Assembly: GCF_021049265.1 (NCBI RefSeq)
Contig: NZ_CP088018.1
Coordinates: forward strand, 2,914,001-2,978,000
From: Ruania suaedae
GTDB lineage: Bacteria > Actinomycetota > Actinomycetes > Actinomycetales > Beutenbergiaceae
DNA length: 64,000 bases
Direction: 5' to 3'
Shown here: positions 9,600 through 60,776 of the stretch, piece after piece
How the letters are laid out: the number at the start of each line of letters is the position of its first letter
Numbering within the stretch: the stretch's first letter is position 1
Notes under the pieces: model-generated
What the model was told of the DNA's origin: nothing
Databases searched by the model: none
Seen by the model: only the letters and a program-made list of their open reading frames with translations
Program-made: the position numbers and the translations under genes

Positions 9600-10550
9600 G
9601 TGAGCGAGAACCCACCCCTGCCCGCCCCGGTCTCCGAGTTGTTCGACCCCCGGCGCTGGCGCGACATCGACGGCGTCGACTTCACCGACATCACCTATCA
9701 CCGGGGGGTCGACCGCTCGCCCGACGGCGGAGCCACCGATCTCCCGGTCGTGCGGATCGCCTTCGACCGCCCGCTGGTCCGCAACGCCTTCCGCCCCCAC
9801 ACCGTGGACGAGCTCTTCCGCGCGCTCGACCACGCCCGGATGAGTCCCGACGTCGCCGCCGTGCTGCTGACCGGCAACGGCCCGAGCCCCAAGGACGGCG
9901 GGTGGGCGTTCTGCTCCGGGGGCGATCAGCGCATCCGCGGCCGGGACGGGTACCGCTACGAGGGCGAGACGGCCGGGCAGGTGGACCCGGCGCGGGCGGG
10001 CCGCCTGCACATCCTGGAGGTGCAGCGACTGATGCGCACCATGCCCAAGCCGGTGATCGCCGTCGTCCCGGGGTGGGCCGCCGGAGGGGGCCACAGCCTG
10101 CACGTGGTGGCCGACCTGACGATCGCCTCGGCCGAGCACGCGAAGTTCATGCAGACCGACGCCAACGTCGGCTCCTTCGACGCCGGCTACGGCTCGGCGC
10201 TGCTGGCACGGCAGGTCGGGGACAAGCGGGCGCGGGAGATCTTCTTCCTGGCGCGGGAGTACTCCGCGGAGCAGGCCGAGCGGTGGGGCGCGATCAACGA
10301 GGCCGTCCCGCATGCGGAGCTGGAGGAGCGGGCGCTGGAGTACGCGCGGATCATCGCCACCAAGTCCCCGCAGGCGCTCCGGATGCTGAAGTTCGCCTTC
10401 AACCTCGCCGACGACGGGATGGCGGGCCAGCAGGTCTTCGCCGGGGAGGCGACCCGGATGGGCTACATGACCGACGAAGCGGTCGAGGGACGCGACGCGT
10501 TCCTGGCCAAGCGCGACCCGGACTGGTCGGCGTTCCCGTACTACTACTGA
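9600..10550 (+). CDS. menB: 1,4-dihydroxy-2-naphthoyl-CoA synthase (MenB)
   Basis: A 316-residue crotonase-family enzyme that cyclises o-succinylbenzoyl-CoA. It has the long N-terminal extension of actinobacterial MenB (FDPRRWRDIDGVDFTDITYH) and the oxyanion-hole segments FCSGGDQRIRG and VPGWAAGGGHSLHVV. It also has the MenB-specific VGSFDAGYGSALLARQVG with the catalytic aspartate/tyrosine region, and the C-terminal PDWSAFPYYY. The GTG at 9600 is chosen over the longer open frame because a TACAGT box sits exactly 6 bases before it. Divergent from the SMR-tetR unit. Confidence 0.95.
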   Translation: MSENPPLPAPVSELFDPRRWRDIDGVDFTDITYHRGVDRSPDGGATDLPVVRIAFDRPLVRNAFRPHTVDELFRALDHARMSPDVAAVLLTGNGPSPKDGGWAFCSGGDQRIRGRDGYRYEGETAGQVDPARAGRLHILEVQRLMRTMPKPVIAVVPGWAAGGGHSLHVVADLTIASAEHAKFMQTDANVGSFDAGYGSALLARQVGDKRAREIFFLAREYSAEQAERWGAINEAVPHAELEERALEYARIIATKSPQALRMLKFAFNLADDGMAGQQVFAGEATRMGYMTDEAVEGRDAFLAKRDPDWSAFPYYY

Positions 10551-10551
10551 C

Positions 10552-11484
10552 CTACTCCCGAACTGCAGCATCGGCGCGGAACCGTGCCGGCGCCACTCCG
10601 CGCACGCGCTTGAAGGCGGCACTGAACGTGAACGCATTCGCATAGCCGACCCGGCCGGCGATCGCTGCCAACGTCAGATCGGTGCCGGTCAGCAGATCGG
10701 CCGCAAGCACGAGGCGCCAACGCGTCAGGTATGCCAGCGGCGGCTCTCCCACCCGGGCGGCGAACCGGCGGGCGAAGGCCGCTCGTGACAGGGCGCACTC
10801 GCCGGCCAGTGCCGCCACGGTCCACGGCTGCTCGGGTCGCTCGTGGATCAGTCCCAGCGCCCGTGAGATCACCGGGTCCTGCTGGGCGGCCGGCCAGCCC
10901 TCCATGAGCTCACCGGCGTACGCGAAGCGCAGGGCGTGCACGAGCACCAGGTCGAGCAGTCGATCGAGGACGGCCACCTGGCCGGGCGCCTCGGTCACCA
11001 GCTCCTCCTCGAGCACCTCGATCACGGGCGAGCGCAGACCCGACAGCACGAGCACCTCCGGCAGGTGCGACAGCACGTGCGCACCGACCGAGGTCTCCTG
11101 CGCGTAGGTGCCGATGAGCATGGTGGTCGCCTCCGGGTCGGTGGTGTTTCCCCAGGTACGCACCCCCAGGTGCATCGATTCCTCGAGAAGCTGCCCGGTG
11201 GAGTCGACGCACACCTGACCGGGCAGGATCCGGATGCCGACAGGAGTGGATGCCGCGTCCGCCACGACATACGGCCGCGGTCCGCGGATCAGGACGACGT
11301 CCTCGGCCACCACCTGGCGCTGCTCGCCGACCGAGGTGACCACCGCCGAGCCGTGGACCACCACGATGACCGACAGGGCCGCCTGGTCCTCCACACCGAT
11401 CGACCACCGCCCGCCGAACATCGCCTTGAGCAGGAAGGCACGCTGTGCGCGTGGGCCGTCGAGCAGGGCGGCCACCACATCCAT
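10552..11484 (-). CDS. AraC family transcriptional regulator with cupin-type sensor domain
   Basis: A 310-residue regulator. Residues about 1-190 resemble the AraC-type cupin sensor domain (SIGVEDQAALSVIVVVHGSA...); the C-terminal 100 residues hold two helix-turn-helices, with WTVAALAGECALSRAAFARR and LTLAAIAGRVGYANAFTFSAAFKR. The ATG at 11484 (MDVVAALLDG) is chosen because conserved sequence begins there; the open frame runs 46 codons further up across the direct repeats described below. It converges on menB and is divergent from the DUF1772 gene, which is its likely target. Confidence 0.88.
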   Translation of the reverse strand: MDVVAALLDGPRAQRAFLLKAMFGGRWSIGVEDQAALSVIVVVHGSAVVTSVGEQRQVVAEDVVLIRGPRPYVVADAASTPVGIRILPGQVCVDSTGQLLEESMHLGVRTWGNTTDPEATTMLIGTYAQETSVGAHVLSHLPEVLVLSGLRSPVIEVLEEELVTEAPGQVAVLDRLLDLVLVHALRFAYAGELMEGWPAAQQDPVISRALGLIHERPEQPWTVAALAGECALSRAAFARRFAARVGEPPLAYLTRWRLVLAADLLTGTDLTLAAIAGRVGYANAFTFSAAFKRVRGVAPARFRADAAVRE

Positions 11485-11541
11485 GAGCGAGACGCTCGCA
11501 TATGCCCACGCGGGCGTCAACCATTCCAGAGTCGCGTAGGA

Positions 11542-11562
11542 GTCGACATGCTGGTCGACATG
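11542..11562. promoter_or_regulatory. Direct repeat in the araC/DUF1772 intergenic region
   Basis: GTCGACATG occurs twice in the same orientation, 12 bases start to start, separated by CTG. It ends 23 bases before the DUF1772 gene. AraC proteins often bind direct half-sites, so this may be the operator, though the spacing is shorter than the usual 21 bases. Confidence 0.4.
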
Positions 11563-11584
11563 AGCACATCCCTCCGGATCCCAC

Positions 11585-11995
11585 GTGGCTGAGCTGCACC
11601 TGCTGGGCGCCCGGCTCCTCACAGGGCTGCTCGGCGGCCTCTATCTCGGGTTCGCGGTGGCCGTCCTGCCCGGGTTGGCACGTCTCGACGACGAGACGTA
11701 CGTCAAGGCGTTCAACCACATCAACGCGGTGATCGTGAACCCGCTGTTCATGGTGGTGTTCCTCGGCTCGCCCGCCCTCGCGGCCACGCTCCCGCTCTGG
11801 GACCGGTCGCCCTCGGTCATCGCCGCGGCGGGGCTCTCGCTCGCCGCGCTGATCAGCACTCTCGTCCGCAACGTCCCGCTCAACAACGAGCTCGCCGCCG
11901 GGTGCCCCCGGGAGTCGTTCGAGTCACGATGGACGCGGTGGCACCACCTGCGGACGTGCGCGATGGTCGCCTCGGCAGCCATGCTCGCCTGGTGA
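11585..11995 (+). CDS. DUF1772 (anthrone oxygenase-like) membrane protein
   Basis: A 136-residue protein with four hydrophobic segments (about 8-30, 48-70, 75-95, 118-135) and the family's NxPLNNEL-type motif seen as RNVPLNNELAAG. DUF1772 proteins are small integral membrane proteins; a few are linked to anthrone oxygenation in polyketide pathways, but no polyketide genes are present here, so function is unassigned. The GTG start at 11585 is the first codon of the frame. Its stop codon lies inside a perfect hairpin (11981-12010). Confidence 0.75.
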   Translation: MAELHLLGARLLTGLLGGLYLGFAVAVLPGLARLDDETYVKAFNHINAVIVNPLFMVVFLGSPALAATLPLWDRSPSVIAAAGLSLAALISTLVRNVPLNNELAAGCPRESFESRWTRWHHLRTCAMVASAAMLAW

Positions 11996-12010
11996 CAACC
12001 AGGCGAGCAT
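11981..12010 (+). terminator. Perfect 13-bp hairpin spanning the DUF1772 stop codon
   Basis: ATGCTCGCCTGGT at 11981-11993 and its exact reverse complement at 11998-12010 enclose the loop GACA. The TGA stop (11993-11995) is at the stem/loop junction. No U-run follows. It may end the upstream transcript or protect its 3' end. Confidence 0.6.
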
Positions 12011-12057
12011 CGTCGCGTGAGAGCGTCGAACCGCCCGAGCGCGCGAGACGGCCCGGG

Positions 12058-12246
12058 TCAGCCGATGACGTACCCCGCCACGACGCGCACCACGGTCCCG
12101 GCGGCGATGGCGAAGCCGGTCAGCAGCGCCAGCACCGCGAGCAGGGAGAGCGTGGCGGGCAGCAGCGAGTCGCGCACCGGGTGCGGCGGCGTGGGCTCGG
12201 TGGACAGAGGGACGGTACCGGCACTGTGGGCATCGATCGTGGTCAT
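12058..12246 (-). CDS. Small hypothetical membrane protein
   Basis: A 62-residue protein: a hydrophilic N-terminus rich in Pro, Thr and Ser (1-25), then a hydrophobic stretch from about 27 to 60 (LLPATLSLLAVLALLTGFAIAAGTVV) that could form one long or two short helices. The ATG at 12246 has a weak GAGGATCGATCC ribosome site. No family is recognised. It lies alone between the DUF1772 and LLM genes. Confidence 0.55.
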   Translation of the reverse strand: MTTIDAHSAGTVPLSTEPTPPHPVRDSLLPATLSLLAVLALLTGFAIAAGTVVRVVAGYVIG

Positions 12247-12356
12247 GGATCGATCCTCGCCGCCGGCCCCGCCCCGGCACATCGGCCCCGGGGATCGACC
12301 TCAGCCCCCGCGCGTCCACCCGGCGGCCGGGCCCGCGTCATCCCTGGGGCGGAGAC

Positions 12357-13124
12357 TCAGCGGCGGGAGTCCCGCCACGCGAGCGCCGCGCGCACCTCGT
12401 CGAGGTCGTAGTCCGGCCCGCTGGTCCCGATGGTGAACAGCGTCGCTCCGGCGTCGACGAACGCCTCCGCCTGGTCCACCCCGGGCCAGCTGGTCGAGCG
12501 CTCGATCACGGCCGGGTCGCGGCCCACGTCGGCGCAGTGCCGCTCGAGCACCCCCGACTTGTGGGTGAAGGTCTCCAGGTCACCGAAGCCGTGCCAGATG
12601 TTCGCGTGCTCGGCCACCAGTCGTAGCGTCTTGCGCTCGCCGCCCCCACCGATCAGCAGCGGCAGGTCGCCCACCGGCGGCGGCGTCACCTGCTGCAACC
12701 GGCCGACGATCCGCGGCAGGTACTCCTTCAGCAGCGCCAGCCGGGTTCCGGGGGTACCGAACTCGTAGCCGTACTCGTCGTAGTCGCGCTCGTTCCAGCC
12801 GGCGCCCACGCCGAGGATGAGGCGCCCGTCGCTGATGTGGTCCACGGTCCGGGCCATATCGGCGAGCAGGTCGGGGTTGCGGTACCCCCCGCCGGTGACC
12901 AGGGCGCCGATCTGCACCCGCTCGGTCTGCTCGGCCCAGGCGCCGAGCATGGTCCAGCACTCGTAGTGATAGCCCTCCGGGTCACCGGTGAGCGGGAAGA
13001 AGTGGTCCCAGTTGAACACCACGTCCACCCCGGCCTCCTCCGAGCGCATCACCGCCTCGCGCATCAGGCGGTACTCCCCCGCGTGCTGGGGCTGGAGCTG
13101 GACGCCGATCCGTACCTCACCCAT
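12357..13124 (-). CDS. LLM class F420-dependent oxidoreductase
   Basis: A 255-residue luciferase-like TIM-barrel oxidoreductase. Typical segments are EEAGVDVVFNWDHFFPL, TERVQIGALVTGGGYRNP, LADMARTVDHISDGRLILGVGAGWNERDY and LPLLIGGGGERKTLRLVAEHAN; the last is characteristic of the F420-using branch. It is shorter than many family members (about 300) because it has a compact C-terminus. ATG at 13124 with a TGAGGAGGACCC ribosome site, 9 bases after the DUF3048 lipoprotein stop, so the two are probably co-transcribed. Substrate unknown. Confidence 0.88.
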   Translation of the reverse strand: MGEVRIGVQLQPQHAGEYRLMREAVMRSEEAGVDVVFNWDHFFPLTGDPEGYHYECWTMLGAWAEQTERVQIGALVTGGGYRNPDLLADMARTVDHISDGRLILGVGAGWNERDYDEYGYEFGTPGTRLALLKEYLPRIVGRLQQVTPPPVGDLPLLIGGGGERKTLRLVAEHANIWHGFGDLETFTHKSGVLERHCADVGRDPAVIERSTSWPGVDQAEAFVDAGATLFTIGTSGPDYDLDEVRAALAWRDSRR

Positions 13125-13133
13125 GGGTCCTCC

Positions 13134-14231
13134 TCAGGACACGCTGACGCCGGCGCCCGAGGTGGGCACCAGCTCGATCCAGGTGTTGCCGGGCGCGAGC
13201 AGGATCTCCTCGCCCTCGCCGGTGGTGAGCACGACCGGGTCGGTGGCGCTCTCCTTGCTCCAGGTGCCCTCGAGGACCTGCCCGCCGGTGGCCACCACCG
13301 CCTCACCACCGCCGGTCATGATCGTCTCGGGCACGTTCGCACCCGAGGGGTCCACGTAGGAGGTGGTGGTCACCTCCACCCGCAGCGCCACCACGTTCAC
13401 CGCACTGATCCGTCCGGTGTCCTCGGTGGTCGCCGGGGCGCCGTCCTCGCTGCGCAGCCAGGCCTGGCCGTCCCAGTCCCACGACGGCGTGGCCCGGGGG
13501 AAGGAGATGGTCAGCGCCTCCGCCGGGCTCCCGTCGGTGACGGCCGTCGCATCCTCGCCCCGGTGGGCGAAGGCGAGCTGCTCGGGCGGCGGGTCGGAGT
13601 GGGCGCCGTCGGCCTGGTCCACGAACAGTGACGGGGTGCCGTAGAGGTTGTGCGGAGCGAACCGTGCGCTGCTGCGGGTGAACCCGCCGTGCCCGAGGTC
13701 GTGGGTGAGCACCTGCAGACCCGCCTCCCGGGCGGCGCCGATGAACGGCGCCTGGCCACCGGAGGCCACGAGCAGACCGCCGTAGGGGGCCGACATCGCG
13801 GCGTCCATGGGGCGCACCGAGCGCACCGGGCCCACCTGCACCGGCAGGTCGGAGTGGTAGACGGCGTTGAAGCGGGTGATCCCGCCCTCGACCATCTCCT
13901 CCCAGACCACGTCCGCGGCCTGCAGACCGGTCTGCGGGCGCGCCGCCTCCGAGTTCTCGATCTTGATCGCCAGGGCGGGGCGGTCCGCGGCGTCCTCGCC
14001 CAGCGGTTCACCGGTGAGCGGCCACGTCGGCGCGACCTCGGGCTCCGGGGGGTGCTGCTTGTCGGCATCGGCCGGGGCGGTGGTCTCCGGCGTGGTGGTC
14101 GGGCTGGGCGTACCGGCCGGCTCGCCCGGGCTGGTGCAGGCGGCCAGCGTCAGCATCAGGGCTGCCGTTGCCGCGGCCGAGGAGCCGATCCGGCCCCGGC
14201 CCGCGCGGGTGAGAAGGCTCAGGTGAGGCAC
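13134..14231 (-). CDS. DUF3048 domain lipoprotein
   Basis: A 365-residue secreted lipoprotein. The signal peptide ends in the lipobox LTLAAC (about residues 26-31), followed by a Thr/Pro/Ser-rich linker to about residue 65. Then comes the DUF3048 core: RPALAIKIENSEAARPQTGL, ADVVWEEMVEGGITRFNAVYHSDLP, and GPVRSVRPMDAAM. The family (YerB-like) is membrane-associated and of uncertain function. The GTG at 14231 is preferred because a TACAGT box stands 6 bases upstream, although the frame is open much further. Divergent from menE. Confidence 0.87.
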   Translation of the reverse strand: MPHLSLLTRAGRGRIGSSAAATAALMLTLAACTSPGEPAGTPSPTTTPETTAPADADKQHPPEPEVAPTWPLTGEPLGEDAADRPALAIKIENSEAARPQTGLQAADVVWEEMVEGGITRFNAVYHSDLPVQVGPVRSVRPMDAAMSAPYGGLLVASGGQAPFIGAAREAGLQVLTHDLGHGGFTRSSARFAPHNLYGTPSLFVDQADGAHSDPPPEQLAFAHRGEDATAVTDGSPAEALTISFPRATPSWDWDGQAWLRSEDGAPATTEDTGRISAVNVVALRVEVTTTSYVDPSGANVPETIMTGGGEAVVATGGQVLEGTWSKESATDPVVLTTGEGEEILLAPGNTWIELVPTSGAGVSVS

Positions 14232-14237
14232 GGATCC

Positions 14238-14243
14238 ACTGTA
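14238..14243 (-). promoter_or_regulatory. -10 box of the DUF3048 gene, leaderless
   Basis: Minus-strand TACAGT, then GGATCC, then GTG: 6-base gap to the start codon, identical in layout to menB. Confidence 0.55.
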
Positions 14244-14280
14244 GACGCTGAGCCCGGCCGGGCCGCGGCACGCGCCCTCG

Positions 14281-14286
14281 TAGGCT
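14281..14286 (+). promoter_or_regulatory. -10 box of menE, leaderless
   Basis: TAGGCT, then GTCGGG, then GTG at 14293: 6-base gap. Confidence 0.6.
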
Positions 14287-14292
14287 GTCGGG

Positions 14293-15450
14293 GTGTCCGA
14301 ACCTGTCAGCGCCCTGCTCCCCCGGCTGACCCGGGCCCTCGACGGCGACGCCCCCGTCCTGCTCGGTCCCGCGGCGCAGGCCGTGGGCGACCAGGTGCGC
14401 GGGCTGCCCGGGACCGCCCTGGTGCTGTCCACCTCCGGCTCCACCGGCAACCCGCGGGCCGTGGCGCTGGGCGCCGAAGCCCTGCGGGCGAGCGCACGCG
14501 CCACCCACCGACGACTGCGCGGGCCGGGCCAGTGGCTGCTCACGCTGCCCGCCGACCACGTGGCGGGCGTCCAGGTGCTGGTGCGCTCGATCCTCGCCGG
14601 CACCGCCCCGGAGCTGACCGAGTCGGGCCCGTTCCGCCCCGCGGACCTGGCCGCCGCCATCGGCCGGATGCGCACCGACGTCCCTCGTTATGTCTCCCTC
14701 GTGCCCACCCAGCTGGTGCGCGTGCTCCAGGCCGACGACGGCGGAGCGTGCGTGGCCGCGCTGGGCACCTGCGCGGCAGTGCTGGTGGGCGGGGCCGCCA
14801 CGCCGCCGGATCTGCTGGACCGGGCGCGCGCGGCCGGGATCGCCGTCGTGACGACCTACGGGATGACCGAGACCTGCGGCGGCTGCGTCTACGACGGGCT
14901 GCCGCTGGAGGGTGTCCAGGTGCGCACGAGCGGGCCCTCGGGGCGGATCGAGATCGCCGGGCCGGTGCTGGCCACGGCCTATCTCTCCCCCGACGGGTCG
15001 GCGCCGGAGGAGCCGGCACCGGACGGCGGCTCGGAGCTGGTCGAGCAGGAGGGCCGACGGTGGCTGCGCACCACCGACTCCGGCCGCCTCGAGCAGGGCC
15101 GGCTGAGCGTGCTGGGCAGGCTCGATGACGTCCTCGTCACCGGTGGGCTGAACGTGCATCCGGCGGAGGTGGAGCGTCGCCTGGCCGCCGCCGGCTTCGG
15201 CGAGTGCGTCGTGGTCGGGGTGCCGGACGAGACGTGGGGTCAGCGCGTGACGGCCGTGGTGGCCGGGCCGGCGACCCTGGCGCAGGTGCGCGACGCCGTC
15301 GGGGGTGGGCCCCTGGCCCCGCAGGCCGTGGTGAGTGTGCCCGATCTGCCCCGCCGTGGCCCCGGCAAACCCGACCGGCGGGCCGCCACCGCCCTGGCGA
15401 CCCTCGCGGTGGCCGAGGGCAGCGCCGAGGTGCACCGGCCCCGCGGCTGA
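14293..15450 (+). CDS. menE: o-Succinylbenzoate-CoA ligase (MenE)
   Basis: A 385-residue AMP-forming acyl-CoA ligase, short for the superfamily as actinobacterial MenE proteins are. The P-loop-like motif is LVLSTSGSTGNPRAVAL (about residues 43-59). Later motifs are TTYGMTETCGGCVYDG, LRTTDSGRLEQG, the hinge GRLDDVLVTGGLNVHPAEVE and the C-terminal lysine in PRRGPGKPDRRAA. A GTG start at 14293 agrees with the TAGGCT box. It activates the MenC product for MenB. Confidence 0.94.
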   Translation: MSEPVSALLPRLTRALDGDAPVLLGPAAQAVGDQVRGLPGTALVLSTSGSTGNPRAVALGAEALRASARATHRRLRGPGQWLLTLPADHVAGVQVLVRSILAGTAPELTESGPFRPADLAAAIGRMRTDVPRYVSLVPTQLVRVLQADDGGACVAALGTCAAVLVGGAATPPDLLDRARAAGIAVVTTYGMTETCGGCVYDGLPLEGVQVRTSGPSGRIEIAGPVLATAYLSPDGSAPEEPAPDGGSELVEQEGRRWLRTTDSGRLEQGRLSVLGRLDDVLVTGGLNVHPAEVERRLAAAGFGECVVVGVPDETWGQRVTAVVAGPATLAQVRDAVGGGPLAPQAVVSVPDLPRRGPGKPDRRAATALATLAVAEGSAEVHRPRG

Positions 15451-15457
15451 TCCACCT

Positions 15458-15530
15458 GACCGGAGCGACACGGCTGCGTCGGTCTGCGGCAACCGGCTGT
15501 CCCACCTCGCGCCACCGTGTCTGGCCGGTC
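15458..15530. repeat. Intergenic repeat copy 1 (between menE and menA)
   Basis: The 34 bases at 15458-15491 match those at 41540-41573 with one mismatch. Here the reverse arm has decayed: 15459-15474 pairs with 15515-15530 at 13 of 16 positions. Both copies lie between same-strand genes directly downstream of a stop codon. Confidence 0.7.
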
Positions 15531-15577
15531 ATCCGCCGACTATCCTGCTGCGAGCCCCCTGCCCTGATCGGAGTCCC

Positions 15578-16447
15578 ATGCCCACCCTGCGCGACTGGGT
15601 GGGCGGCGCACGCCCGCGTACGCTGCCCGCTGCCCTCGCCCCCGTGCTCGCCGGGACCGGCGCCGCCGCCTACGACAACGCCGCCTCCCCGGTCCGGGCA
15701 CTGCTCGCCGCGGGGGTGGCCCTCGCCCTGCAAGTGGCCGTCAACTTCGCCAACGACTACTCCGACGGCGTCCGGGGCACCGACGACGTCCGGGTCGGCC
15801 CGGTGCGGCTCACCGCCTCGGGTGCGGTGGCCCCGGGAACCGTCAAGCGGGCCGCCTATGCCGCCTTCGCGGTGGCGGGCGTGCTCGGGGTGGTGCTGTG
15901 CGCCGTCGCCGGCACCTGGTGGCTGATCGCGGTGGGAGCCCTGTGTGTGCTCGCCGGCTGGTTCTACACCGGCGGGAAGAACCCCTACGGCTACCGCGGC
16001 CTCGGCGAGGTGGCGGTGTTCGTCTTCTTCGGGCTGGTGGCCACCCTCGGCACCACCTACACCCAAGCCGGTCGCCTCACGGTTCCGGCGGTGCTGGCCG
16101 CCTGTGCCATCGGTGCCCTGGCGTGCGCGCTGCTGATGGTCAACAACATCCGGGACATCCCCACCGACACCGTGGCCGGCAAGCGCACGCTGGCGGTACG
16201 GCTGGGCGATCGGCGCGCACGGGTGGCCTACACCGGGCTGCTCGTGGCCGCGCTGGTCTGCGCCGTGGCCATCGGCGGGTGGGCGCCGTGGGCGCTGCTG
16301 CTCACCGGCTTCGCGATCCCCGTGCTGCAGCTGGCCGGGCAGGTGCTCGGCGGCGCGAGCGGCCGGGAGCTGATCGTGGTGCTGGGCCGCACCGGGCTGC
16401 TGGAGCTAGCGCTCGGGGTCGGCCTGGCCGTGGTGCTCACGATCTGA
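15578..16447 (+). CDS. menA: 1,4-dihydroxy-2-naphthoate polyprenyltransferase (MenA)
   Basis: A 289-residue UbiA-superfamily membrane prenyltransferase attaching the polyprenyl tail to DHNA. The two Asp-rich Mg-diphosphate motifs are NFANDYSDGVRGTDD (residues about 51-65) and NNIRDIPTDTVAGKRTLAVRLG (about 188-209), between eight or so hydrophobic helices. ATG at 15578 with GGAG 5 bases upstream; the open frame continues upstream through the intergenic repeat and is not used. A TATCCT box at 15541 would give a leader of about 25-30 bases. The 3' end overlaps the convergent DUF4229 gene by 42 bases. Confidence 0.95.
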   Translation: MPTLRDWVGGARPRTLPAALAPVLAGTGAAAYDNAASPVRALLAAGVALALQVAVNFANDYSDGVRGTDDVRVGPVRLTASGAVAPGTVKRAAYAAFAVAGVLGVVLCAVAGTWWLIAVGALCVLAGWFYTGGKNPYGYRGLGEVAVFVFFGLVATLGTTYTQAGRLTVPAVLAACAIGALACALLMVNNIRDIPTDTVAGKRTLAVRLGDRRARVAYTGLLVAALVCAVAIGGWAPWALLLTGFAIPVLQLAGQVLGGASGRELIVVLGRTGLLELALGVGLAVVLTI

Positions 16448-16732
16448 GCTCTCGCTCGCGGGATCACCGCGCTGCCGGTCGACGTCCTCGTCCTCGGCGT
16501 CGGCATCGGCCCGCAGGCCCCGCCCGAACCGGCTCTCCTTGCCCGCCGCCCGCCGCTGCAGCCACAGCGCCGAGGCCTGCCGGAACCGGTCCAGCAGCAC
16601 GTAGGAGAGCGCGGCGCCGAGAAGCACCGCCGCCGCGACCAGCAGCACGCCCCGCATCCCGGCCAGGTAGAGCCCCGCCCCGGCGATGCCGATGAGGAGC
16701 AGCCGCAGGGCGCTGTAGACGATCACGGGCAT
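16406..16732 (-). CDS. DUF4229 domain protein
   Basis: A 108-residue protein with two hydrophobic helices (about 6-24 and 28-48: LLLIGIAGAGLYLAG and VLLVAAAVLLGAALSYVLL). These are followed by LLDRFRQASALWLQRRAAG and an acidic, low-complexity tail, the layout of DUF4229. Function unknown. The ATG at 16732 is preferred over a GTG two codons upstream because TACGCT ends 6 bases before it. The last 14 codons overlap the 3' end of menA on the opposite strand. Confidence 0.8.
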   Translation of the reverse strand: MPVIVYSALRLLLIGIAGAGLYLAGMRGVLLVAAAVLLGAALSYVLLDRFRQASALWLQRRAAGKESRFGRGLRADADAEDEDVDRQRGDPASESSDREHHGQADPER

Positions 16733-54014: not shown

Positions 54015-54377
54015 ATGACGGACGCAACTGGTAGCACCGGGCCGATCACCGAGGTTCGCGAGGGCATGACGGTCTTCGATTCCGGCGGTGAGAAGGTCGG
54101 CACCGTCCGTGACATCCAGATGGGCGACCCGGGTGCGACCACCTCCGCAGGACAGGAGAACGACCGCGGCAACAGCCTGGTCGGGAACGTGGCCGACGCG
54201 CTGCGGATCGACTCCCTTCCCGAGGCTGCCCGCGAGCGCCTCATGCGCGTGGGGTTCGTGCGTGTGGACTCCAGTGGCCTCTTCCACCGGGACCGCTACG
54301 CCGCCAGCGACGAGATCGGCGCGGTGAAGGACGATGCCGTGCACCTCACGGTCGCCGGCGACCATCTCCTGCACTGA
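54015..54377 (+). CDS. Hypothetical protein with PRC-barrel-like N-terminus
   Basis: A 120-residue soluble protein. The segment ITEVREGMTVFDSGGEKVGTVRDIQMGDP is like the PRC-barrel/DUF2171 pattern (a strand-turn motif with VFDxxGEKVGTV), and the C-terminus FVRVDSSGLFHRDRYAASDEIGAV matches the second half of such proteins. Role unknown; relatives are often stress-related. A strong AAGGAGG site precedes the ATG, and a terminator follows directly. Confidence 0.75.
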   Translation: MTDATGSTGPITEVREGMTVFDSGGEKVGTVRDIQMGDPGATTSAGQENDRGNSLVGNVADALRIDSLPEAARERLMRVGFVRVDSSGLFHRDRYAASDEIGAVKDDAVHLTVAGDHLLH

Positions 54378-54383
54378 CCCCGG

Positions 54384-54410
54384 CCTGGGCGCACCGGCGG
54401 TGCGCCCAGG
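54384..54410 (+). terminator. Terminator hairpin after the PRC-like gene
   Basis: CCTGGGCGCACC at 54384-54395 pairs perfectly with GGTGCGCCCAGG at 54399-54410 over a three-base loop. It starts 7 bases past the stop. Confidence 0.75.
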
Positions 54411-54427
54411 ACACTCGTCAGTACGAC

Positions 54428-54465
54428 CGACACCGCGTAGGCCCGTCGTGGCCTGCGCGGTGTCG
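54428..54465 (+). promoter_or_regulatory. Second strong hairpin, 30 bases upstream of the beta-propeller array
   Basis: Arms at 54428-54443 and 54450-54465 pair at 15 of 16 positions, the exception being a T-G (U-G in RNA), with loop CGTCGT. A second terminator, a reverse-strand element or a leader structure of the array are all possible. Confidence 0.55.
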
Positions 54466-54494
54466 TGCGTGCGTGCGGCACCGGGTGAGCGCCG

Positions 54495-55778
54495 GTGAAG
54501 GAGCCGGTGGAGGAGTTCACCCTCGAGATCGGCGAGGGCTTGAACGTCTCGCCCGGGTCCGCCCGAGCCGCGGGCGCCGCGCCCCGGCGACGGCGCAGCT
54601 CTCCCTGGCCCTGGGTCGCTGCGGCACTCGCGCTCGCCGTGTCCGGTGTGGCGATCTCCCCCGGCGGTGAGCGCCCGGATCCTCGCCCGCCCCAGACAGC
54701 GTGGACCCATCCGTCGACGCCGGGTCGCGCACCAGGCGCTTGGACGCTCGAGGGGGCCCCGGTGGTCGCGAGCTCGACCGGCGTCGCCGCGTTCGAGCCC
54801 ACGACCGGTGCCGAGCTCTGGTCGGTGCCGCTGGACGATCCGGCGTGCACCGCTGCCGCAGAACAGCTGACCTGCGTGCACGGCCAGGGCGAGGGCGCGA
54901 TGATGGCGACGATCAGCGCCTCCGGAACACTCCACGAGGAGCCACTCCCCGGAGCCGATATCGCGATGGCGTACGACGGCGATCTCCTCGTCGGTGGCCT
55001 CGAACCCGAACGCCCGTGGCTGGGCCGGTTCACCGCGGAGCAGCCGCGCCGGGAGATCTGGCGCGTGCGCGCCGAGCGCCCCTCCGATGCGATGCGCTGG
55101 CAGGGAATGACACTGAGCCAGGGGGTGGCGACCGTCCACTCGGGGCGCGACGCCGACGGCTGGGCCCGGTTCGGGATGGCCGCCGAGGTCGAGACCGGCG
55201 AGATGACGACGGCCATCGTGCTCGCCCCCGGAGGCAGCTCCGGGTTCGGCGCCGGGCCACCGCTGGGAGCCGATCCGGACATGCTGCTCCCGCTCGCCGG
55301 CCCGGGTCTCGATGTCCCCGGCCGGCCGGAGGCGGTGGTCAACCGGCGCGGGGTCTTCACCGAAGCCGACGGTGATCCGTTGCTGGAGGTCAACGGCTTC
55401 TCGCTGGCCGCCTATGGCGACGACATCGTCGCCTTCACCGCCGACCCCGGCGCACCGCCCGAGCACCGGGAGGTGCGGATCGAACGCCTCGACGTGCGCA
55501 CCGGTGAGTCGCTGTGGGCGATCCCGCTCGATCTGGTGGCGACCTGCCCATGCGCCCGGAGCGCGGACACGTTAGTGCTCACCGACCTGGTCGAGCGCGA
55601 GGATCCCCCGGAGTTCACCAGCCCGGTGCGGGTTCGGGCACTGCTCGGCGTCGACCCCGAGGCAGGGCTGCTCCGCTGGCGCCTGCCGGTGACCGGACCG
55701 CCCGACGCCTTCACCGCCGATGTGGGCCGGTTGTACGTCCTGGCCGAGGGCACCCTGACGGCCTACGCGACACGTTGA
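54495..55778 (+). CDS. Membrane-anchored PQQ-like beta-propeller protein, array copy 1
   Basis: A 427-residue protein. A cytoplasmic tail with EEFTLEIGEG is followed by APRRRRSSPWPW and one helix (about 37-55: WVAAALALAVSGVAI) ending SPGGERP. The external part has propeller blades of the A-x-D-x-x-TG-x-x-x-W kind: EPTTGAELWSVPL, DVRTGESLWAIPL, DPEAGLLRWRLPV. Cysteines: C-x8-C in DPACTAAAEQLTCVHG and CPC in ATCPCARSADTLV. PQQ ligands are not evident, so a scaffold role is more likely than an enzyme. GTG 54495 used; GTG 54507 (VEEFTL) is an alternative with AAGGAG close by. Confidence 0.85.
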   Translation: MKEPVEEFTLEIGEGLNVSPGSARAAGAAPRRRRSSPWPWVAAALALAVSGVAISPGGERPDPRPPQTAWTHPSTPGRAPGAWTLEGAPVVASSTGVAAFEPTTGAELWSVPLDDPACTAAAEQLTCVHGQGEGAMMATISASGTLHEEPLPGADIAMAYDGDLLVGGLEPERPWLGRFTAEQPRREIWRVRAERPSDAMRWQGMTLSQGVATVHSGRDADGWARFGMAAEVETGEMTTAIVLAPGGSSGFGAGPPLGADPDMLLPLAGPGLDVPGRPEAVVNRRGVFTEADGDPLLEVNGFSLAAYGDDIVAFTADPGAPPEHREVRIERLDVRTGESLWAIPLDLVATCPCARSADTLVLTDLVEREDPPEFTSPVRVRALLGVDPEAGLLRWRLPVTGPPDAFTADVGRLYVLAEGTLTAYATR

Positions 55779-55795
55779 CTCCGGGTGAGAATGGG

Positions 55796-57085
55796 ATGAT
55801 GGTGAGCGGTCGGACCGACGAGTTCACCCTCGATGGCGAGGGGCCACCCGGCACGGCGGCGCCCGGCGAGCCCCGACGACGCGGGCCGGCTCGGACCGCA
55901 GGCTCACCCTGGCCATGGGTCGCCGCGGCGATGGCTCTGCTCGCGGCCGGGGTGGTGGTCTCCCCCGGCGGGGAGCGCCCGGCGGCCGGTCCGCCGCCGG
56001 CGGCGTGGACGCGTGAGGTGCCCGCCGGCCGTGCCCCGTCGGTCTGGGTGAGCGGTGAGCGCACCCTCGTGGCGTCCGCGACCTCGGTCTCCGGCCTCGA
56101 GGCAGCCACCGGGGAGGACCTCTGGTCGGTCCCGCTGGACGATCCAGCCTGCACCGAGCAGGCCGGGCAGCTGACCTGCGTGCACGGCGAGGGCGAGGAC
56201 GCCGTGATCGCCACCGTCACCGCCGAGGGCGACGTCAGCGAGCGCCCCTTCCCGGGCGCGAGCGTGGCCCACGCCGCCGGCGACGCCCTGCTGGTGGCCG
56301 GGCTGACCGAGTCGGGCGTGCCGTTCGTGGACCGCTACGAGGAAGGCGTGGCACAGCGCACCTGGCGCACGGCACTGGACCAGCCGTTCGGTGAGCACCC
56401 CTTCGGTCGGGCCACCGTGAGCCAGGGCGTCGCGACGTTCTACCGGACGCTGAGCGACCCCTACCCGTTCCTCGCGGTCGAGGTCGCGACCGGTGAGCAA
56501 CAGCCGACCGTCATCCTGACCCCGCGGGGCCGGATGGTGGGGATGAACGACGGTGTCGAGTCGGGCGACCTGCAGATCGTGCCGGTGCCGGGGCCGGGGC
56601 TGGACCTGCCCGATCACCCCGACGCGGTCGTCACCACCTCCGGGGTCACGACTCCCGGGGGCGAGATGGAGTACGCCAGCGTCTCCGGCACCATCGTCGC
56701 GGCGCTCGGCCAGGACGTGCTGGAGTGGGGCTTCGCCCCGCCGGACGCCCCCTACGATCCGGCGTCGCCGCCCACCGGCCTCCCGGGCACGTTGGCCAGG
56801 GTCGACGTGTTCGGCCGAGGGCGGTCGTGGAGCACGCCGACCGACGGGATCCTGGGGTGCCCGTGCGCCGTCAGCGAGAACACTGCAGCCTTGCTCACCA
56901 GTCGCTGGGTCCAGGATTCCGACCAGCCCGACCTCGAGCCGTATGCGATCCACGGCTTCGACCTGGGCGACGGTTCGACCCGCTGGTCGATACCGCTCAC
57001 CACCGCACCCGACGGCGTCGCCGCCGGGCCCGACCACCTCTACGTCCTCAGCGAGGGCACCCTGACCGCCTACGTCGATCGCTGA
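55796..57085 (+). CDS. Membrane-anchored PQQ-like beta-propeller protein, array copy 2
   Basis: A 429-residue paralogue 17 bases after copy 1. TDEFTLDGEG tail, AGSPWPW before the helix (WVAAAMALLAAGVVV), then SPGGERP. Blades: EAATGEDLWSVPLDDPAC, DLGDGSTRWSIPL. The cysteines keep their positions: ACTEQAGQLTCVHG (C-x8-C) and GCPCAVSENTAAL. It is closest to copy 1, including long identical DNA stretches around the C-x8-C region. Two adjacent ATGs (55796, 55799) follow GGGTGAG; either may start. Function unknown. Confidence 0.85.
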   Translation: MMVSGRTDEFTLDGEGPPGTAAPGEPRRRGPARTAGSPWPWVAAAMALLAAGVVVSPGGERPAAGPPPAAWTREVPAGRAPSVWVSGERTLVASATSVSGLEAATGEDLWSVPLDDPACTEQAGQLTCVHGEGEDAVIATVTAEGDVSERPFPGASVAHAAGDALLVAGLTESGVPFVDRYEEGVAQRTWRTALDQPFGEHPFGRATVSQGVATFYRTLSDPYPFLAVEVATGEQQPTVILTPRGRMVGMNDGVESGDLQIVPVPGPGLDLPDHPDAVVTTSGVTTPGGEMEYASVSGTIVAALGQDVLEWGFAPPDAPYDPASPPTGLPGTLARVDVFGRGRSWSTPTDGILGCPCAVSENTAALLTSRWVQDSDQPDLEPYAIHGFDLGDGSTRWSIPLTTAPDGVAAGPDHLYVLSEGTLTAYVDR

Positions 57086-57106
57086 CGGCTGGGTGATGAT
57101 GGGGTG

Positions 57107-58315
57107 ATGGGAGCACGCGGCACCGAGGAGTTCACCCTCGGTGCGCCGCGCGCCGGGACGACACCCCCGCACCGGCCCACCGGCCGGGCGCGGGCCTGGC
57201 CGGTGCTGCCCTGGGTGGCATGCGCGCTCGCGCTCATCGTGGCCGCCGTCGCCGTGGCTCCCGCACCCCCGCCCGGGGTCAGCCCGTGGGGGTACCTGCC
57301 GCACCTGCGGGAGCGGCCAGAGCTCGCCTGGCAGCTGGAGAGCACCGAGGTGACCGGGGCCTGGGCGTTCGGTGGGGTGCTCGCCGTCGCCGATCTGAGC
57401 GGGGTCGCCGGGATGGACGCCAGGTCGGGTCGGGAACGCTGGCGGCTCGATGCCCGGGCCCCGCGATGCACCTCCGACGGCACCCTGCTGACCTGCCTGA
57501 CCCGGCGTGAGGACGCCGTGCTCGTCGTCGACCCCGACAGCGGGGCGACCAACCGGTGGGACGTGCCGGACGCCGTGGCCGCCATCGCGTACGAGGACGG
57601 CGTCGTCGCCGTCACCACCTCCGGCCTCACCCGGATCGATGCCGACGGGCGCGCTCTGTGGACGCAACCCCGCACCCTCGGCGCCCCGGTGGCCGAGGGA
57701 CCCGCGGTCATCGATGGCTGGTTGTTCGTCAGCGTCCTCGGTCCGGTCGGAGGCCTGGTACCCCTCGACGTCGAGACCGGTGAGCCGGGCGACCTGGAGG
57801 TCGTCGGGCGGTCGGTCTCCCGCGTCCGCGAGGGGCTGTGGACCTCCTCGGCCGATGGGACGATCCGGCTGTTCGCGCGCGATCAGCAGCAGCACCAGGT
57901 CGGTGACCCGCGGGACTACGTCGCCACCGTGAGCGACCCCGCCCTGCTCGCGGAGCCGCTCCCCCGCACGCAGTCGCAGTGGTCCCCCCTGGCCCTGCTG
58001 CCGGGAGTCGCGCTCGGGAGCGTCGACGGCACCAGGGTCGCCGCGCTGGACACCAGCACCGGGCACGAGCTCTGGCGCCGGGAGCTCGTGATGGGCTGGA
58101 TCGAGACGCCGTTGGTGGACGAGGAGACGATGGTCACCACCGTGCTCGACCCGGCGACGGGGAGTCGATCCACCGTGCAGGCGATCGACGCCCGGACCGG
58201 AGCGGACCGGTGGCGGCTGGAACGCCCCGGCCACATCCGCACGATGATCGGCGGCAACCGGCACCTGTACCTGCTCGACGCCTTCGGCGTCACCGCGTGG
58301 GAGCTGAGCCGCTGA
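57107..58315 (+). CDS. Membrane-anchored PQQ-like beta-propeller protein, array copy 3
   Basis: A 402-residue paralogue. TEEFTLGAPR tail, helix about 32-50 (LPWVACALALIVAAVAVA) and a different linker (GVSPWGYLPHLRERPELAWQ) shared only with copy 4. Blades: DARSGRERWRLDA, DTSTGHELWRREL, DARTGADRWRLERP. C-x8-C kept (PRCTSDGTLLTC); no CPC motif. It begins 21 bases after copy 2 and its stop overlaps the next start (TGATG). Confidence 0.85.
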   Translation: MGARGTEEFTLGAPRAGTTPPHRPTGRARAWPVLPWVACALALIVAAVAVAPAPPPGVSPWGYLPHLRERPELAWQLESTEVTGAWAFGGVLAVADLSGVAGMDARSGRERWRLDARAPRCTSDGTLLTCLTRREDAVLVVDPDSGATNRWDVPDAVAAIAYEDGVVAVTTSGLTRIDADGRALWTQPRTLGAPVAEGPAVIDGWLFVSVLGPVGGLVPLDVETGEPGDLEVVGRSVSRVREGLWTSSADGTIRLFARDQQQHQVGDPRDYVATVSDPALLAEPLPRTQSQWSPLALLPGVALGSVDGTRVAALDTSTGHELWRRELVMGWIETPLVDEETMVTTVLDPATGSRSTVQAIDARTGADRWRLERPGHIRTMIGGNRHLYLLDAFGVTAWELSR

Positions 58316-59493
58316 TGCGCACCGACGAGTTCGAGCCGGCGCCGCCGCCACGAGAACTCCCACCCCGACGGCGACCCCGGACCTGGTCGGGCCCGTGGCC
58401 CTGGGCGATGGTCGCCGTCGTGCTCGTGGTGGGCGCGGTCCTGACCGCGCCCCGGCCCGGGCCGGTGGTCGACCCGTGGGGGCGGGTGCCGGACCTCGCG
58501 AGCACGCCCGAGCTCATGTGGGAGATCGAGCAGTCCGACATCGACGACCTGTGGCTCTTCGACGGGGTGATCGCCTTCGTCGCCCGTGGTGACGTCGTCG
58601 GGCTCGACATCGGGACCGGTGAGCGGCGGTGGGAGGTGAGCGCCACGATCCCCCGGTGCACCTCGACCGGCACCTCGCTGGTGTGTGCCACGGACGGCAC
58701 CACCGTGCTGGAGATCGACCCCCGCAGCGGCCGCGTGGACGAGCACCGCATCGACGGGGTGGTGGCCGCCACCCGACACGAGGGCGATCTGATCGCCGTG
58801 ACCGAGACGGCGATGATCCGCCTGGACGACGAGGGCGAGGTCCGATGGCGGGTGCCCGAGGGCGGTATGGAGCCGAGCCTGTGGTTCGCAGGGCCGGCCG
58901 TGGTGGGAGGGCAGGTGGTGGCGATCCGCTCCGACCTCTACGAGCGGCCCGACGCCCCGGCCGCTGTCGATCCGGAGACCGGCGACACCCTCGGCGGCCC
59001 CGGTGGCTACCCACTCCCCCTGCGGGACGGCGTGTGGACGTTCGGCAGAGGCAGCCCCTCCACGCACTACCTGCTGCGCGGAGAGCCGGCCCCCCTGGTG
59101 AGCGCACTCCCTGTCGTCGCCACCGACGCGCCGCAGCAGCTGTCCGCGAGCGAGTTCACCACGGGCACGGACCTCCCGTTCGCACTGGTCGACGACGTCC
59201 GGGTCGACACCCTGACCGGCGGCGGTGAGGGCGGCACAGCCGCCACGGACGTGAGCACCGGGGAGACGCTCTGGCAGACGGATCAACTCGGCGGACTGGG
59301 CCAGAACACGCTGATCGACAACCGCACGGTGGCCTATCTGTCCTCCACCGAGGACGAGTACGTGTACACCGCCCGCGACGTGCGCACCGGCCGGGAGCAC
59401 TGGAGCATCGCCGGTCAGCTCACCGTCGACACCGACGGTGAGCATCTCCTCGGCAGGACCTCCACCAGCGTGACGGCGTGGGAGCTCGGATGA
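58315..59493 (+). CDS. Membrane-anchored PQQ-like beta-propeller protein, array copy 4
   Basis: A 392-residue paralogue. RTDEFEPAPPP tail, PRRRPRTWSGPWPW, helix about 30-48 (AMVAVVLVVGAVLTA), then VVDPWGRVPDLASTPELMWE as in copy 3. Blades: DIGTGERRWEVSA, DVSTGETLWQTDQL, DVRTGREHWSIAG. C-x8-C kept (PRCTSTGTSLVC), CPC absent. The anchor-coding DNA is nearly the same as in copy 5. Start overlaps the previous stop; stop overlaps the next start (ATGA). Confidence 0.85.
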   Translation: MRTDEFEPAPPPRELPPRRRPRTWSGPWPWAMVAVVLVVGAVLTAPRPGPVVDPWGRVPDLASTPELMWEIEQSDIDDLWLFDGVIAFVARGDVVGLDIGTGERRWEVSATIPRCTSTGTSLVCATDGTTVLEIDPRSGRVDEHRIDGVVAATRHEGDLIAVTETAMIRLDDEGEVRWRVPEGGMEPSLWFAGPAVVGGQVVAIRSDLYERPDAPAAVDPETGDTLGGPGGYPLPLRDGVWTFGRGSPSTHYLLRGEPAPLVSALPVVATDAPQQLSASEFTTGTDLPFALVDDVRVDTLTGGGEGGTAATDVSTGETLWQTDQLGGLGQNTLIDNRTVAYLSSTEDEYVYTARDVRTGREHWSIAGQLTVDTDGEHLLGRTSTSVTAWELG

Positions 59494-60776
59494 GCAAGAA
59501 CGACGAGTTCACCATCTCCGGTGAGGGCGCGGCACACGCCGGCACCGAACCACCACGACGGCGACCCCGGGCCGGGTCGGGCCCGTGGCCCTGGGCGTTG
59601 CTCGCCGTCGTGCTGCTGGTGGGCGCTGTGCTGACCTCGCCCGGCGGGGAGCGACCGGTGGCGGAGGCCTGGTCGGTGGCGGTCGAGGACGCGGCCGCGG
59701 CCGGTGTCTGGGTCCTCGGCTCAGAGGTGGTCGCCACGGTCGAGGGGGACGAGGTCGTCGCTCGCGGCACCGGCGACGGGCACGAGCAGTGGCGGATCTC
59801 CGTGCGCGAGCCCCACTGCTCCGCCGACGGCGACCGGCTGGCGTGCGTCGCCTCCGGCCCGCCCTCGCGGTCCACGCCCGGAGCGATCACGCTCGTCGAC
59901 GCCGCCGGGCAGACGACGGTGATGCAGCTCGAGGGAGCACACCTGGCGGTGCCCCTGGGCGAGGACGTCGTGGTGGCGGGCGGGTCCGGCGCCGACGAGC
60001 GCTGGCTGGCCCGGATCGACCCCGACGGCGCCGAGGTCTGGCGCACCGTGGTCGAGGAGGCGTCCTCGAACCGTTCGGTGCCGCTGACCTTCGCCGAGCT
60101 CACGCTCACGCCACGGCAGATCGTCTGGCGCTACGGCCCGGACGAGTTCGCACCGCCCGATCCGGGCATGGTGGACCCGGCCACCGGCGAACGGCTCCCG
60201 ACCCTCAGCGCCGCGCCCTACACCTCGAGCCTGCCGCTGGAGTTCGAACGCACGCTCATCCACCTCGCGGCTGACTCCCGTGCCCCCGACGGCGAGATCG
60301 CCGTGATGACCGGTGGCGTCGCCGAGGGCGCCGAGGGCGACTGGCTGTGGCGCTGGGACGTCGACGAGATGCCGCTGGCGGTCTCGGAGTCCCACGTGAG
60401 GACCATGGTGAACGCCGACCTCGCCGCGTCATTCGCGGGCGGGCCGCTCGGATACGCGGCGCTGCGCACACGCACCCTGCAGGAGGGCCGGATCGAGGAG
60501 TCGACGACGTCCTACCGATCGATCGGCTGCCCCTGCGCGTGGGCGGGCGGGACGCTGGTGGCTCACGGCTACGCGGTGGCCGACCGCGAGGCACTGGCGC
60601 AGGGCCCGTACCGGCTCGATGTGCTGATGATCGAGGGCACCGAGGTGGTGGCCAGCTTTCCGCGCCAGACCCTCATGCCGGCCGACCAGGGCGCCCGGCC
60701 GGCCGGCCTCGCCACCGACGGCTCGACGGTGTTCCTGCGCCAGGACGGGCGGCTGCTGGCGCTGGACACCCCCTGA
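59490..60776 (+). CDS. Membrane-anchored PQQ-like beta-propeller protein, array copy 5
   Basis: A 428-residue paralogue, last of the array. NDEFTISGEG tail, PRRRPRAGSGPWPW and helix LLAVVLLVGAVLTSP like copy 4, but the post-helix SPGGERP and the cysteines (EPHCSADGDRLACVAS, C-x8-C; GCPCAWAGGTLV) like copies 1 and 2, so it appears mosaic. Fewer clear blades than the others (GTGDGHEQWRISV, DPDGAEVWRTVV). Ends 10 bases from the convergent SDR gene. Confidence 0.84.
   Translation: MSKNDEFTISGEGAAHAGTEPPRRRPRAGSGPWPWALLAVVLLVGAVLTSPGGERPVAEAWSVAVEDAAAAGVWVLGSEVVATVEGDEVVARGTGDGHEQWRISVREPHCSADGDRLACVASGPPSRSTPGAITLVDAAGQTTVMQLEGAHLAVPLGEDVVVAGGSGADERWLARIDPDGAEVWRTVVEEASSNRSVPLTFAELTLTPRQIVWRYGPDEFAPPDPGMVDPATGERLPTLSAAPYTSSLPLEFERTLIHLAADSRAPDGEIAVMTGGVAEGAEGDWLWRWDVDEMPLAVSESHVRTMVNADLAASFAGGPLGYAALRTRTLQEGRIEESTTSYRSIGCPCAWAGGTLVAHGYAVADREALAQGPYRLDVLMIEGTEVVASFPRQTLMPADQGARPAGLATDGSTVFLRQDGRLLALDTP

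What the first reader, a model, noticed from the sequence alone, without database searches (positions are those of the whole stretch)
54495..60776. Five-gene tandem array of anchored beta-propeller paralogues
Five consecutive same-strand genes of 392-429 residues share one design: an acidic EF(T/E) cytoplasmic tail, a Pro-Trp anchor, a single helix and an extracytoplasmic PQQ-like propeller. They are spaced by 17 and 21 bases or overlap (TGATG, ATGA), so they are made as a set. No enzyme, transporter or regulator is inserted. This suggests a hetero-oligomeric or combinatorial surface complex whose short conserved tails recruit a common cytoplasmic partner. I know of no named system of this form, but cannot search.
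Basis: partly seen in the sequence, partly recalled or inferred. Interest (0 to 1): 0.75.

Follow-up and report, generated by a model that had tools for sequence, protein, structure and literature searches.

The report
Tandem tail-anchored propeller gene array
A Ruania bacterium carries five side-by-side genes for surface propeller proteins that share one short inner tail but differ in their outer parts; in related species tail and outer part have been exchanged between neighbouring genes, so the set looks like an evolving repertoire rather than a fixed machine.

Summary
In detail: five same-strand genes (54495-60776) encode 392-429 residue single-pass proteins with an acidic [DE]EFx[LIV] tail, a basic stretch, a Pro-Trp anchor, one helix and a BamB-like propeller (g2 and g3 modelled, pLDDT 83 and 77). 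The genome belongs to the genus Ruania. All 8 held Ruania genomes and 16 of 24 held genomes of the family have such genes; no intact tail was seen outside the family in samples of 198 order and 296 class genomes. Tail plus anchor behaves as an exchangeable module: against another Ruania, a R. rhizosphaerae gene joins the tail and helix of one paralogue to the propeller of the next, and g4 and g5 of the window share only a 97-column anchor block at DNA level. In related genera the same tail and helix also sit on small proteins without a recognisable propeller. None of the five has a clear one-to-one orthologue in all Ruania genomes, which speaks against a fixed hetero-oligomer and for a birth-and-death repertoire. 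A common cytoplasmic partner is inferred, not found. Most likely these are extracytoplasmic docking scaffolds or receptors. No named system was found in the libraries and paper listings searched.

The parts
54495..55778 (+). g1, tail-anchored propeller protein, 427 aa, tail VEEFTLEI, PWPW anchor
   Evidence: PQQ_2 29.9 bits, cut-off 27.6; not modelled
55796..57085 (+). g2, tail-anchored propeller protein, 429 aa, tail TDEFTLDG, PWPW anchor
   Evidence: PQQ_2 20.2 bits, under cut-off; model of the 428 aa form, pLDDT 82.6, helix 39-53, strands 68-426
57107..58315 (+). g3, tail-anchored propeller protein, 402 aa, tail TEEFTLGA, LPW anchor
   Evidence: PQQ_2 57.6 bits; model pLDDT 76.6, helix 35-50, strands 72-399, residues 257-290 under 50
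58315..59493 (+). g4, tail-anchored propeller protein, 392 aa, tail TDEFEPAP, PWPW anchor
   Evidence: PQQ_2 50.8 bits; start overlaps g3 stop (TGATG); not modelled
59490..60776 (+). g5, tail-anchored propeller protein, 428 aa, tail NDEFTISG, PWPW anchor
   Evidence: PQQ_2 18.8 bits, under cut-off; start overlaps g4 stop (ATGA); not modelled
58360..58456 (+). anchor homology block in g4, 88.7% identical to the block in g5 over 97 columns
   Evidence: blastn E 3e-29; the only match between g4 and g5 at E 1e-4, word 9
59550..59645 (+). anchor homology block in g5 (partner of the g4 block)
54384..54472 (+). two strong hairpins (12 and 16 or more pairs) between the upstream PRC-barrel-like gene and g1, possible transcription boundary
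   Evidence: -84.2 kcal/mol, z -5.3 for 54375-54500; the terminator scan found none with a T-run there, so the boundary is inference

Best explanation
This is a birth-and-death tandem family of type II (N-in, C-out) single-pass membrane proteins. A constant N-terminal module (acidic [DE]EFx[LIV] tail, basic stretch, Pro-Trp anchor, one helix) holds a faster-changing propeller outside the membrane. The tail most likely docks each copy on one common cytoplasmic partner encoded elsewhere, and the propellers act as non-enzymatic docking scaffolds or receptors, each for a different extracytoplasmic protein or envelope polymer. Copies arise and are lost in tandem, and recombination at the anchor block puts the constant module on different propellers. 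Shown: anatomy, motif, predicted fold of two of the five, distribution, exchange events. Inferred: topology, tail binding, propeller ligands, function.
Against: No partner was identified and no gene linked to all arrays was seen. The tail region as a whole is not slower than the propeller (pooled dN/dS 0.31 against 0.35); only the EF core is strict. General homogenisation of anchors within genomes is not significant (permutation p 0.151), so exchange is shown for particular genes only. dN/dS is under 1: no proof of diversifying selection. One orphan copy lacks the EF tail, one is lipoprotein-type and two of genus g7 have a changed motif, so the tail is not indispensable for every copy. Ligands are unknown. 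Many unrelated eukaryotic propellers score nearly as high in the fold comparison.
Confidence: 0.42

Rival explanations
1. The five form one hetero-oligomeric surface complex of defined composition.
For: Overlapping genes and short gaps suggest co-translation; one shared tail. The g1/g2 clade has a member in all 8 Ruania genomes (tree).
Against: The rest of the set differs between species: no one of the five has a clear one-to-one orthologue in all 7 other Ruania genomes, and G002, G005 and G007 have a clade that the window lacks. Apparently broken copies occur.
Confidence: 0.15
2. Immunity or decoy array: tandem recombining paralogues that each neutralise a variant toxin or phage protein at the surface, as in T7SS esaG or tipC arrays.
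For: Array form, copy loss, and recombination through conserved blocks resemble what the abstract of PMC9484751 reports for esaG and tipC.
Against: No secreted-toxin gene was recognised beside the arrays, by eye, from the starts of the called genes; the toxin-like genes that were seen, PIN and VapB in G007, are of the intracellular kind. No PADLOC hit for the five. WXG100 genes are in 23 of 24 family genomes, with or without arrays, and none was found in G018, which has 6 tail matches. Immunity would not need a conserved cytoplasmic tail.
Confidence: 0.12
3. Lineage-specific tandem duplicates of one BamB-like scaffold with no combinatorial meaning; the tail is needed only for translation, membrane insertion or stability.
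For: Restricted to one family as far as sampled, apparently broken copies, propeller and tail region both evolving fast.
Against: An E-F pair with acidic and aliphatic neighbours (D or E at -1 in 55 of 59, L, I or V at +3 in 56 of 59; EF itself 55 of 58 without selection) is stricter than insertion or translation should need, and it is kept on small proteins without a recognisable propeller.
Confidence: 0.25
4. PQQ-dependent or other enzymes at the surface.
For: PQQ_2 and weaker PQQ hits.
Against: Dehydrogenase models are far below cut-off (TIGR03075 17 against 480 bits for g3); catalytic residues were not examined one by one.
Confidence: 0.04

Closest known systems
BamB (YfgL), outer membrane assembly scaffold
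   Same: Extracytoplasmic PQQ-like propeller; top solved match of both models
   Different: BamB is a lipoprotein of Gram-negative bacteria without a cytoplasmic tail (recalled); curated model far from met (40.1 against 285.2 bits)
Rv3035 / MMAR_1667, mycobacterial propeller found with FecB and AftB
   Different: Not among the 50 rows for g2; no sequence match; MMAR_1667 is described as a predicted lipoprotein (Rv3035 without a conventional lipobox), and no tail or array is mentioned in the passages read
Rv3212 family (NF050114)
   Same: Weak local match over about 50 residues of g3 and g1
   Different: 25.9 bits at best against a cut-off of 150
GpsB and its cytoplasmic mini-domain clients
   Same: Short cytoplasmic tails of several envelope proteins bind one cytosolic adaptor (passages of PMC6335420)
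   Different: Motif there is basic, SRxxR(R/K)-like, and clients are not a tandem paralogue array; here the conserved motif is acidic and the partner unknown
esaG and tipC T7SS immunity arrays
   Same: Tandem non-identical paralogues that recombine through conserved blocks (abstract of PMC9484751)
   Different: Immunity to secreted toxins; no such toxin recognised here

Membership tests
PQQ_2 (PF13360) | Pfam gathering score | tested here: inconclusive
   g1, g3, g4 over 27.6 bits, g2 20.2 and g5 18.8 under
PQQ_2 / BamB-like propeller fold | Propeller structure | tested here: met
BamB equivalog (TIGR03300) | Curated score 285.2 | tested here: not met
   Best 40.1 bits, g3
PQQ-dependent dehydrogenases (TIGR03075) | Curated score 480 | tested here: not met
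   17 bits, g3
PQQ-dependent dehydrogenases (TIGR03075) | Catalytic and metal-binding residues | not tested
   No residue-by-residue check was made
Rv3212 family (NF050114) | Curated score 150 | tested here: not met
   25.9 bits at best, g3
Rv3035-type FecB/AftB scaffold | Propeller fold | tested here: met
Rv3035-type FecB/AftB scaffold | Sequence relationship | tested here: inconclusive
   Not among profile matches to E 0.01 or E 1
Rv3035-type FecB/AftB scaffold | Binding to FecB-like lipoprotein and glycosyltransferase | not testable with these tools
   Needs interaction data
T7SS immunity array | Linked secreted-toxin gene | tested here: inconclusive
   None recognised by eye in the gene lists of the window and 26 loci; only 10 neighbours of relatives were scanned with Pfam
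GpsB client tails | SRxxR(R/K)-type basic motif | tested here: inconclusive
   The conserved motif is acidic [DE]EFx[LIV]; the basic run before the helix was not scored for SRxxR

The most novel reading that the evidence does not exclude
A modular surface repertoire in one Gram-positive family: a constant cytoplasmic docking tail and helix, exchanged by recombination among tandem genes that carry different propellers and sometimes a different small ectodomain, so that many outside binding specificities report to, or are placed by, one hidden cytoplasmic hub.
Probability: 0.3. Interest if true: 0.75.

Novelty: new variant of a known kind. Interest (0 to 1): 0.5.

Why it matters
If the tail is a docking motif, it is a direct bait for an unknown cytoplasmic hub of actinobacterial envelope organisation, and the arrays are a natural set of tail and ectodomain swaps. 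They would show how a Gram-positive cell diversifies surface binding while keeping one inner connection. If the tail proves dispensable, the locus is an ordinary lineage-specific expansion of BamB-like scaffolds.

Tried and rejected
Phosphothreonine switch on EFT: rejected as a general mechanism, because the residue after EF is T in only 18 of 59 members. Genome-wide anchor homogenisation: tested, not significant (p 0.151; of 37 Ruania rows, 3 shorter than 380 aa and 3 without a recognised anchor pattern were left out, 31 used). Full-length profile A2 over class and order: no usable answer twice, so the distribution outside the family rests on the 64-position tail-plus-anchor profile A3 and on profile A1 in 59 genomes. 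Linked common partner: the PRC-barrel-like gene upstream was seen in loci of G000, G001, G003 and G006, not in those of G002, G004, G005, G007 or in the Occultella loci (by gene starts), so it is not the general partner. The 80 named loci (best 80 of 590) were found by the neighbouring Gfo/Idh gene, not by the array; the family profile matches L064, L065, L066 (Ruania) and L073 (Occultella), plus one ORF of L085 (Cellulomonas aerilata, E 3e-17) without the motif in its first 250 residues. The sixth PQQ match of the own genome (E 0.01) looks like an unrelated multi-helix protein. Rv3212 papers (listing only) gave nothing of use. Paper searches for such a system; no description of this array was seen in their listings (one search showed 20 of 41 papers, 20 of 383, 6 of 30), and the library holds open-licence PubMed Central papers only.

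Rows dropped: 65 of 66 members entered the tree (one under 300 aa); 59 of 66 entered the motif table, because only rows with EF or DF in the first 20 residues of the chosen start could be aligned. Of the other seven, one (L042_5) has an EF tail from a GTG start, two look like fragments of frameshifted genes with a tail in another frame, two (G013) have DE[IV]ELDI, one is lipoprotein-type and one is tail-less. Members were taken at E 1e-8 with profile A1, so at least one further member (L055:9082-10182) and the short proteins are not among the 66. Some of the matches counted per genome are partial and lack the tail positions (in G001, G005, G021). Apparent frameshifts can be assembly errors, most of all in the 360-contig G007.
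Full report
What is there. The window lies in a 3.56 Mb single-contig genome. Genomes of the same genus hold contigs whose lengths equal those of Ruania rhizosphaerae (G006), R. albidiflava DSM 18029 (G005) and Candidatus R. gallistercoris (G007), so it is a Ruania (Micrococcales, Ruaniaceae). Five same-strand genes run from 54495 to 60776 with gaps of 17 and 21 bases and TGATG and ATGA overlaps; no other gene was called between them. The upstream PRC-barrel/DUF2171-like gene (54015-54377; scores just under the Pfam cut-offs) is separated from g1 by two strong hairpins (z -5.3). The downstream short-chain dehydrogenase gene is convergent, 10 bases from the g5 stop. In the own genome the profile of the five finds only these five and one weak PQQ protein that looks unrelated.

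Distribution. Profile A1 found members in 16 of 59 genomes (own included), all in the family. The tail-plus-anchor profile found matches in 16 of all 24 held family genomes: genera g1 (Ruania) 8 of 8, g4 (Occultella, named through G023) 4 of 4, g8 3 of 3, g7 1 of 1, and 0 of 8 genomes in six other genera; 3 to 8 matches each, some partial. In samples of 198 order and 296 class genomes no intact tail was seen outside the family. The tandem runs of Ruania, Occultella and g8 lie downstream of a Gfo/Idh plus sugar-isomerase-like gene pair. On the far side lie flavoprotein and short-chain dehydrogenase genes in G000, G002, G005, G007, in the Occultella loci L047, L053 and L061 and in the g8 loci L051, L055 and L060, but other genes in G001, G003, G004 and G006. 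The same flanks without the array occur in Cellulomonas timonensis (L079), so the metabolic neighbours are not dedicated partners. Single members away from this place also exist, for example L048, L052, L054, L056 and L059.

The tail is a separate module. The motif is [DE]EFx[LIV], a median of 31 residues before the helix (range 20-69), with D or E at -1 in 55 of 59 and L, I or V at +3 in 56 of 59. With the helix placed from the propeller alone, EF precedes it in 55 of 58 located cases, against 0 and 1 of 58 in the other frames. In Occultella and genus g8 small proteins of about 145-184 residues have the same tail and helix but no Pfam match (0 of 5) and no recognised propeller. In R. rhizosphaerae the gene L045:6730-7965 matches one G003 paralogue over nt 1-146 (96%) and the next over nt 144-1236 (93%); the two arrays are collinear there except for one step of about 1.3 kb, as if tail and helix of one gene had been joined to the propeller of its neighbour by recombination. 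In 3 of 5 orthologue pairs between G003 and G006, this one included, tail-plus-helix and propeller differ in synonymous divergence (uncorrected p 0.003, 0.0001, 0.0097). In the window, g4 and g5 share no DNA similarity except a 97-column anchor block at 88.7%, while their propellers are 18 to 22% identical. A general test for within-genome homogenisation was not significant (p 0.151), and the tail region as a whole does not evolve more slowly than the propeller.

A repertoire, not a fixed set. In the tree of 65 members and by direct comparison, g2 has clear orthologues in G001, G003 and G006, g5 in G001, G003, G004 and G006, g3 in G003 and G006, g4 in G004, and g1 none that is one-to-one. The clade of g1 and g2 together has a member in all 8 Ruania genomes; G002, G005 and G007 have it next to a clade that the window lacks. 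Fragments and apparently frameshifted copies occur in G001, G007, G017 and G020. Propeller dN/dS is 0.35 pooled over 5 pairs, against 0.055 and 0.10 for the flanking Gfo/Idh and sugar-isomerase-like genes: fast, but still purifying on average.

How it most likely works. Basic residues before the helix (50 of 59) and a lipoprotein-type variant in Ca. R. gallistercoris support an N-in, C-out protein. The strict EF core on different ectodomains is best explained by binding to one common cytoplasmic partner. A precedent for such tails is GpsB, which binds cytoplasmic mini-domains of several envelope proteins (passages of PMC6335420); a precedent for an actinobacterial extracytoplasmic propeller as scaffold is the Rv3035 orthologue found with FecB and AftB (passages of PMC12802301). 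Neither shows that the present proteins do this. The partner was not found. The rivals, a defined hetero-oligomer, an immunity-type array, and plain duplication with a tail needed only for insertion, are weighed in their sections.

Novelty. The parts are known; a recombining tandem array with one strict cytoplasmic tail was not seen in Pfam, NCBIfam or PADLOC or in the listings of the paper searches. The library lacks most subscription journals and holds no bioRxiv preprints, so this is a weak negative.

Noticed in passing
window 54384-54472: Two long hairpins (12 and 16 or more pairs) between the PRC-barrel-like gene and g1, without a T-run; folding z-score -5.3.
   Followed up: partly
L046:6523-7674 (Ca. 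Ruania gallistercoris): One array member has a lipoprotein-type start (MRVRR...AVTGC) in place of the EF tail and anchor.
   Followed up: partly
L053:9887-10354, L061:8609-9085, L047:8487-8942, L051:5756-6310, L063:9631-10068: Small proteins with the same tail and helix but a short ectodomain without Pfam match, in Occultella and genus g8.
   Followed up: partly
L049 and L050 (G013): Members of genus g7 have tails DE[IV]ELDI or DVEFDLDL; the copy in L050 lies beside a PP2C phosphatase and a protein kinase gene (Pfam), a third neighbour had no Pfam match.
   Followed up: partly
L046:3356-4077 and 7719-8126 (Ca. Ruania gallistercoris): A VapB-like and PIN-domain gene pair near the array and another PIN-domain gene between two members.
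   Followed up: partly
L079 (Cellulomonas timonensis) 10001-16614: The Gfo/Idh, sugar-isomerase-like, flavoprotein and short-chain dehydrogenase genes that flank the array in the window occur there without it.
   Followed up: partly
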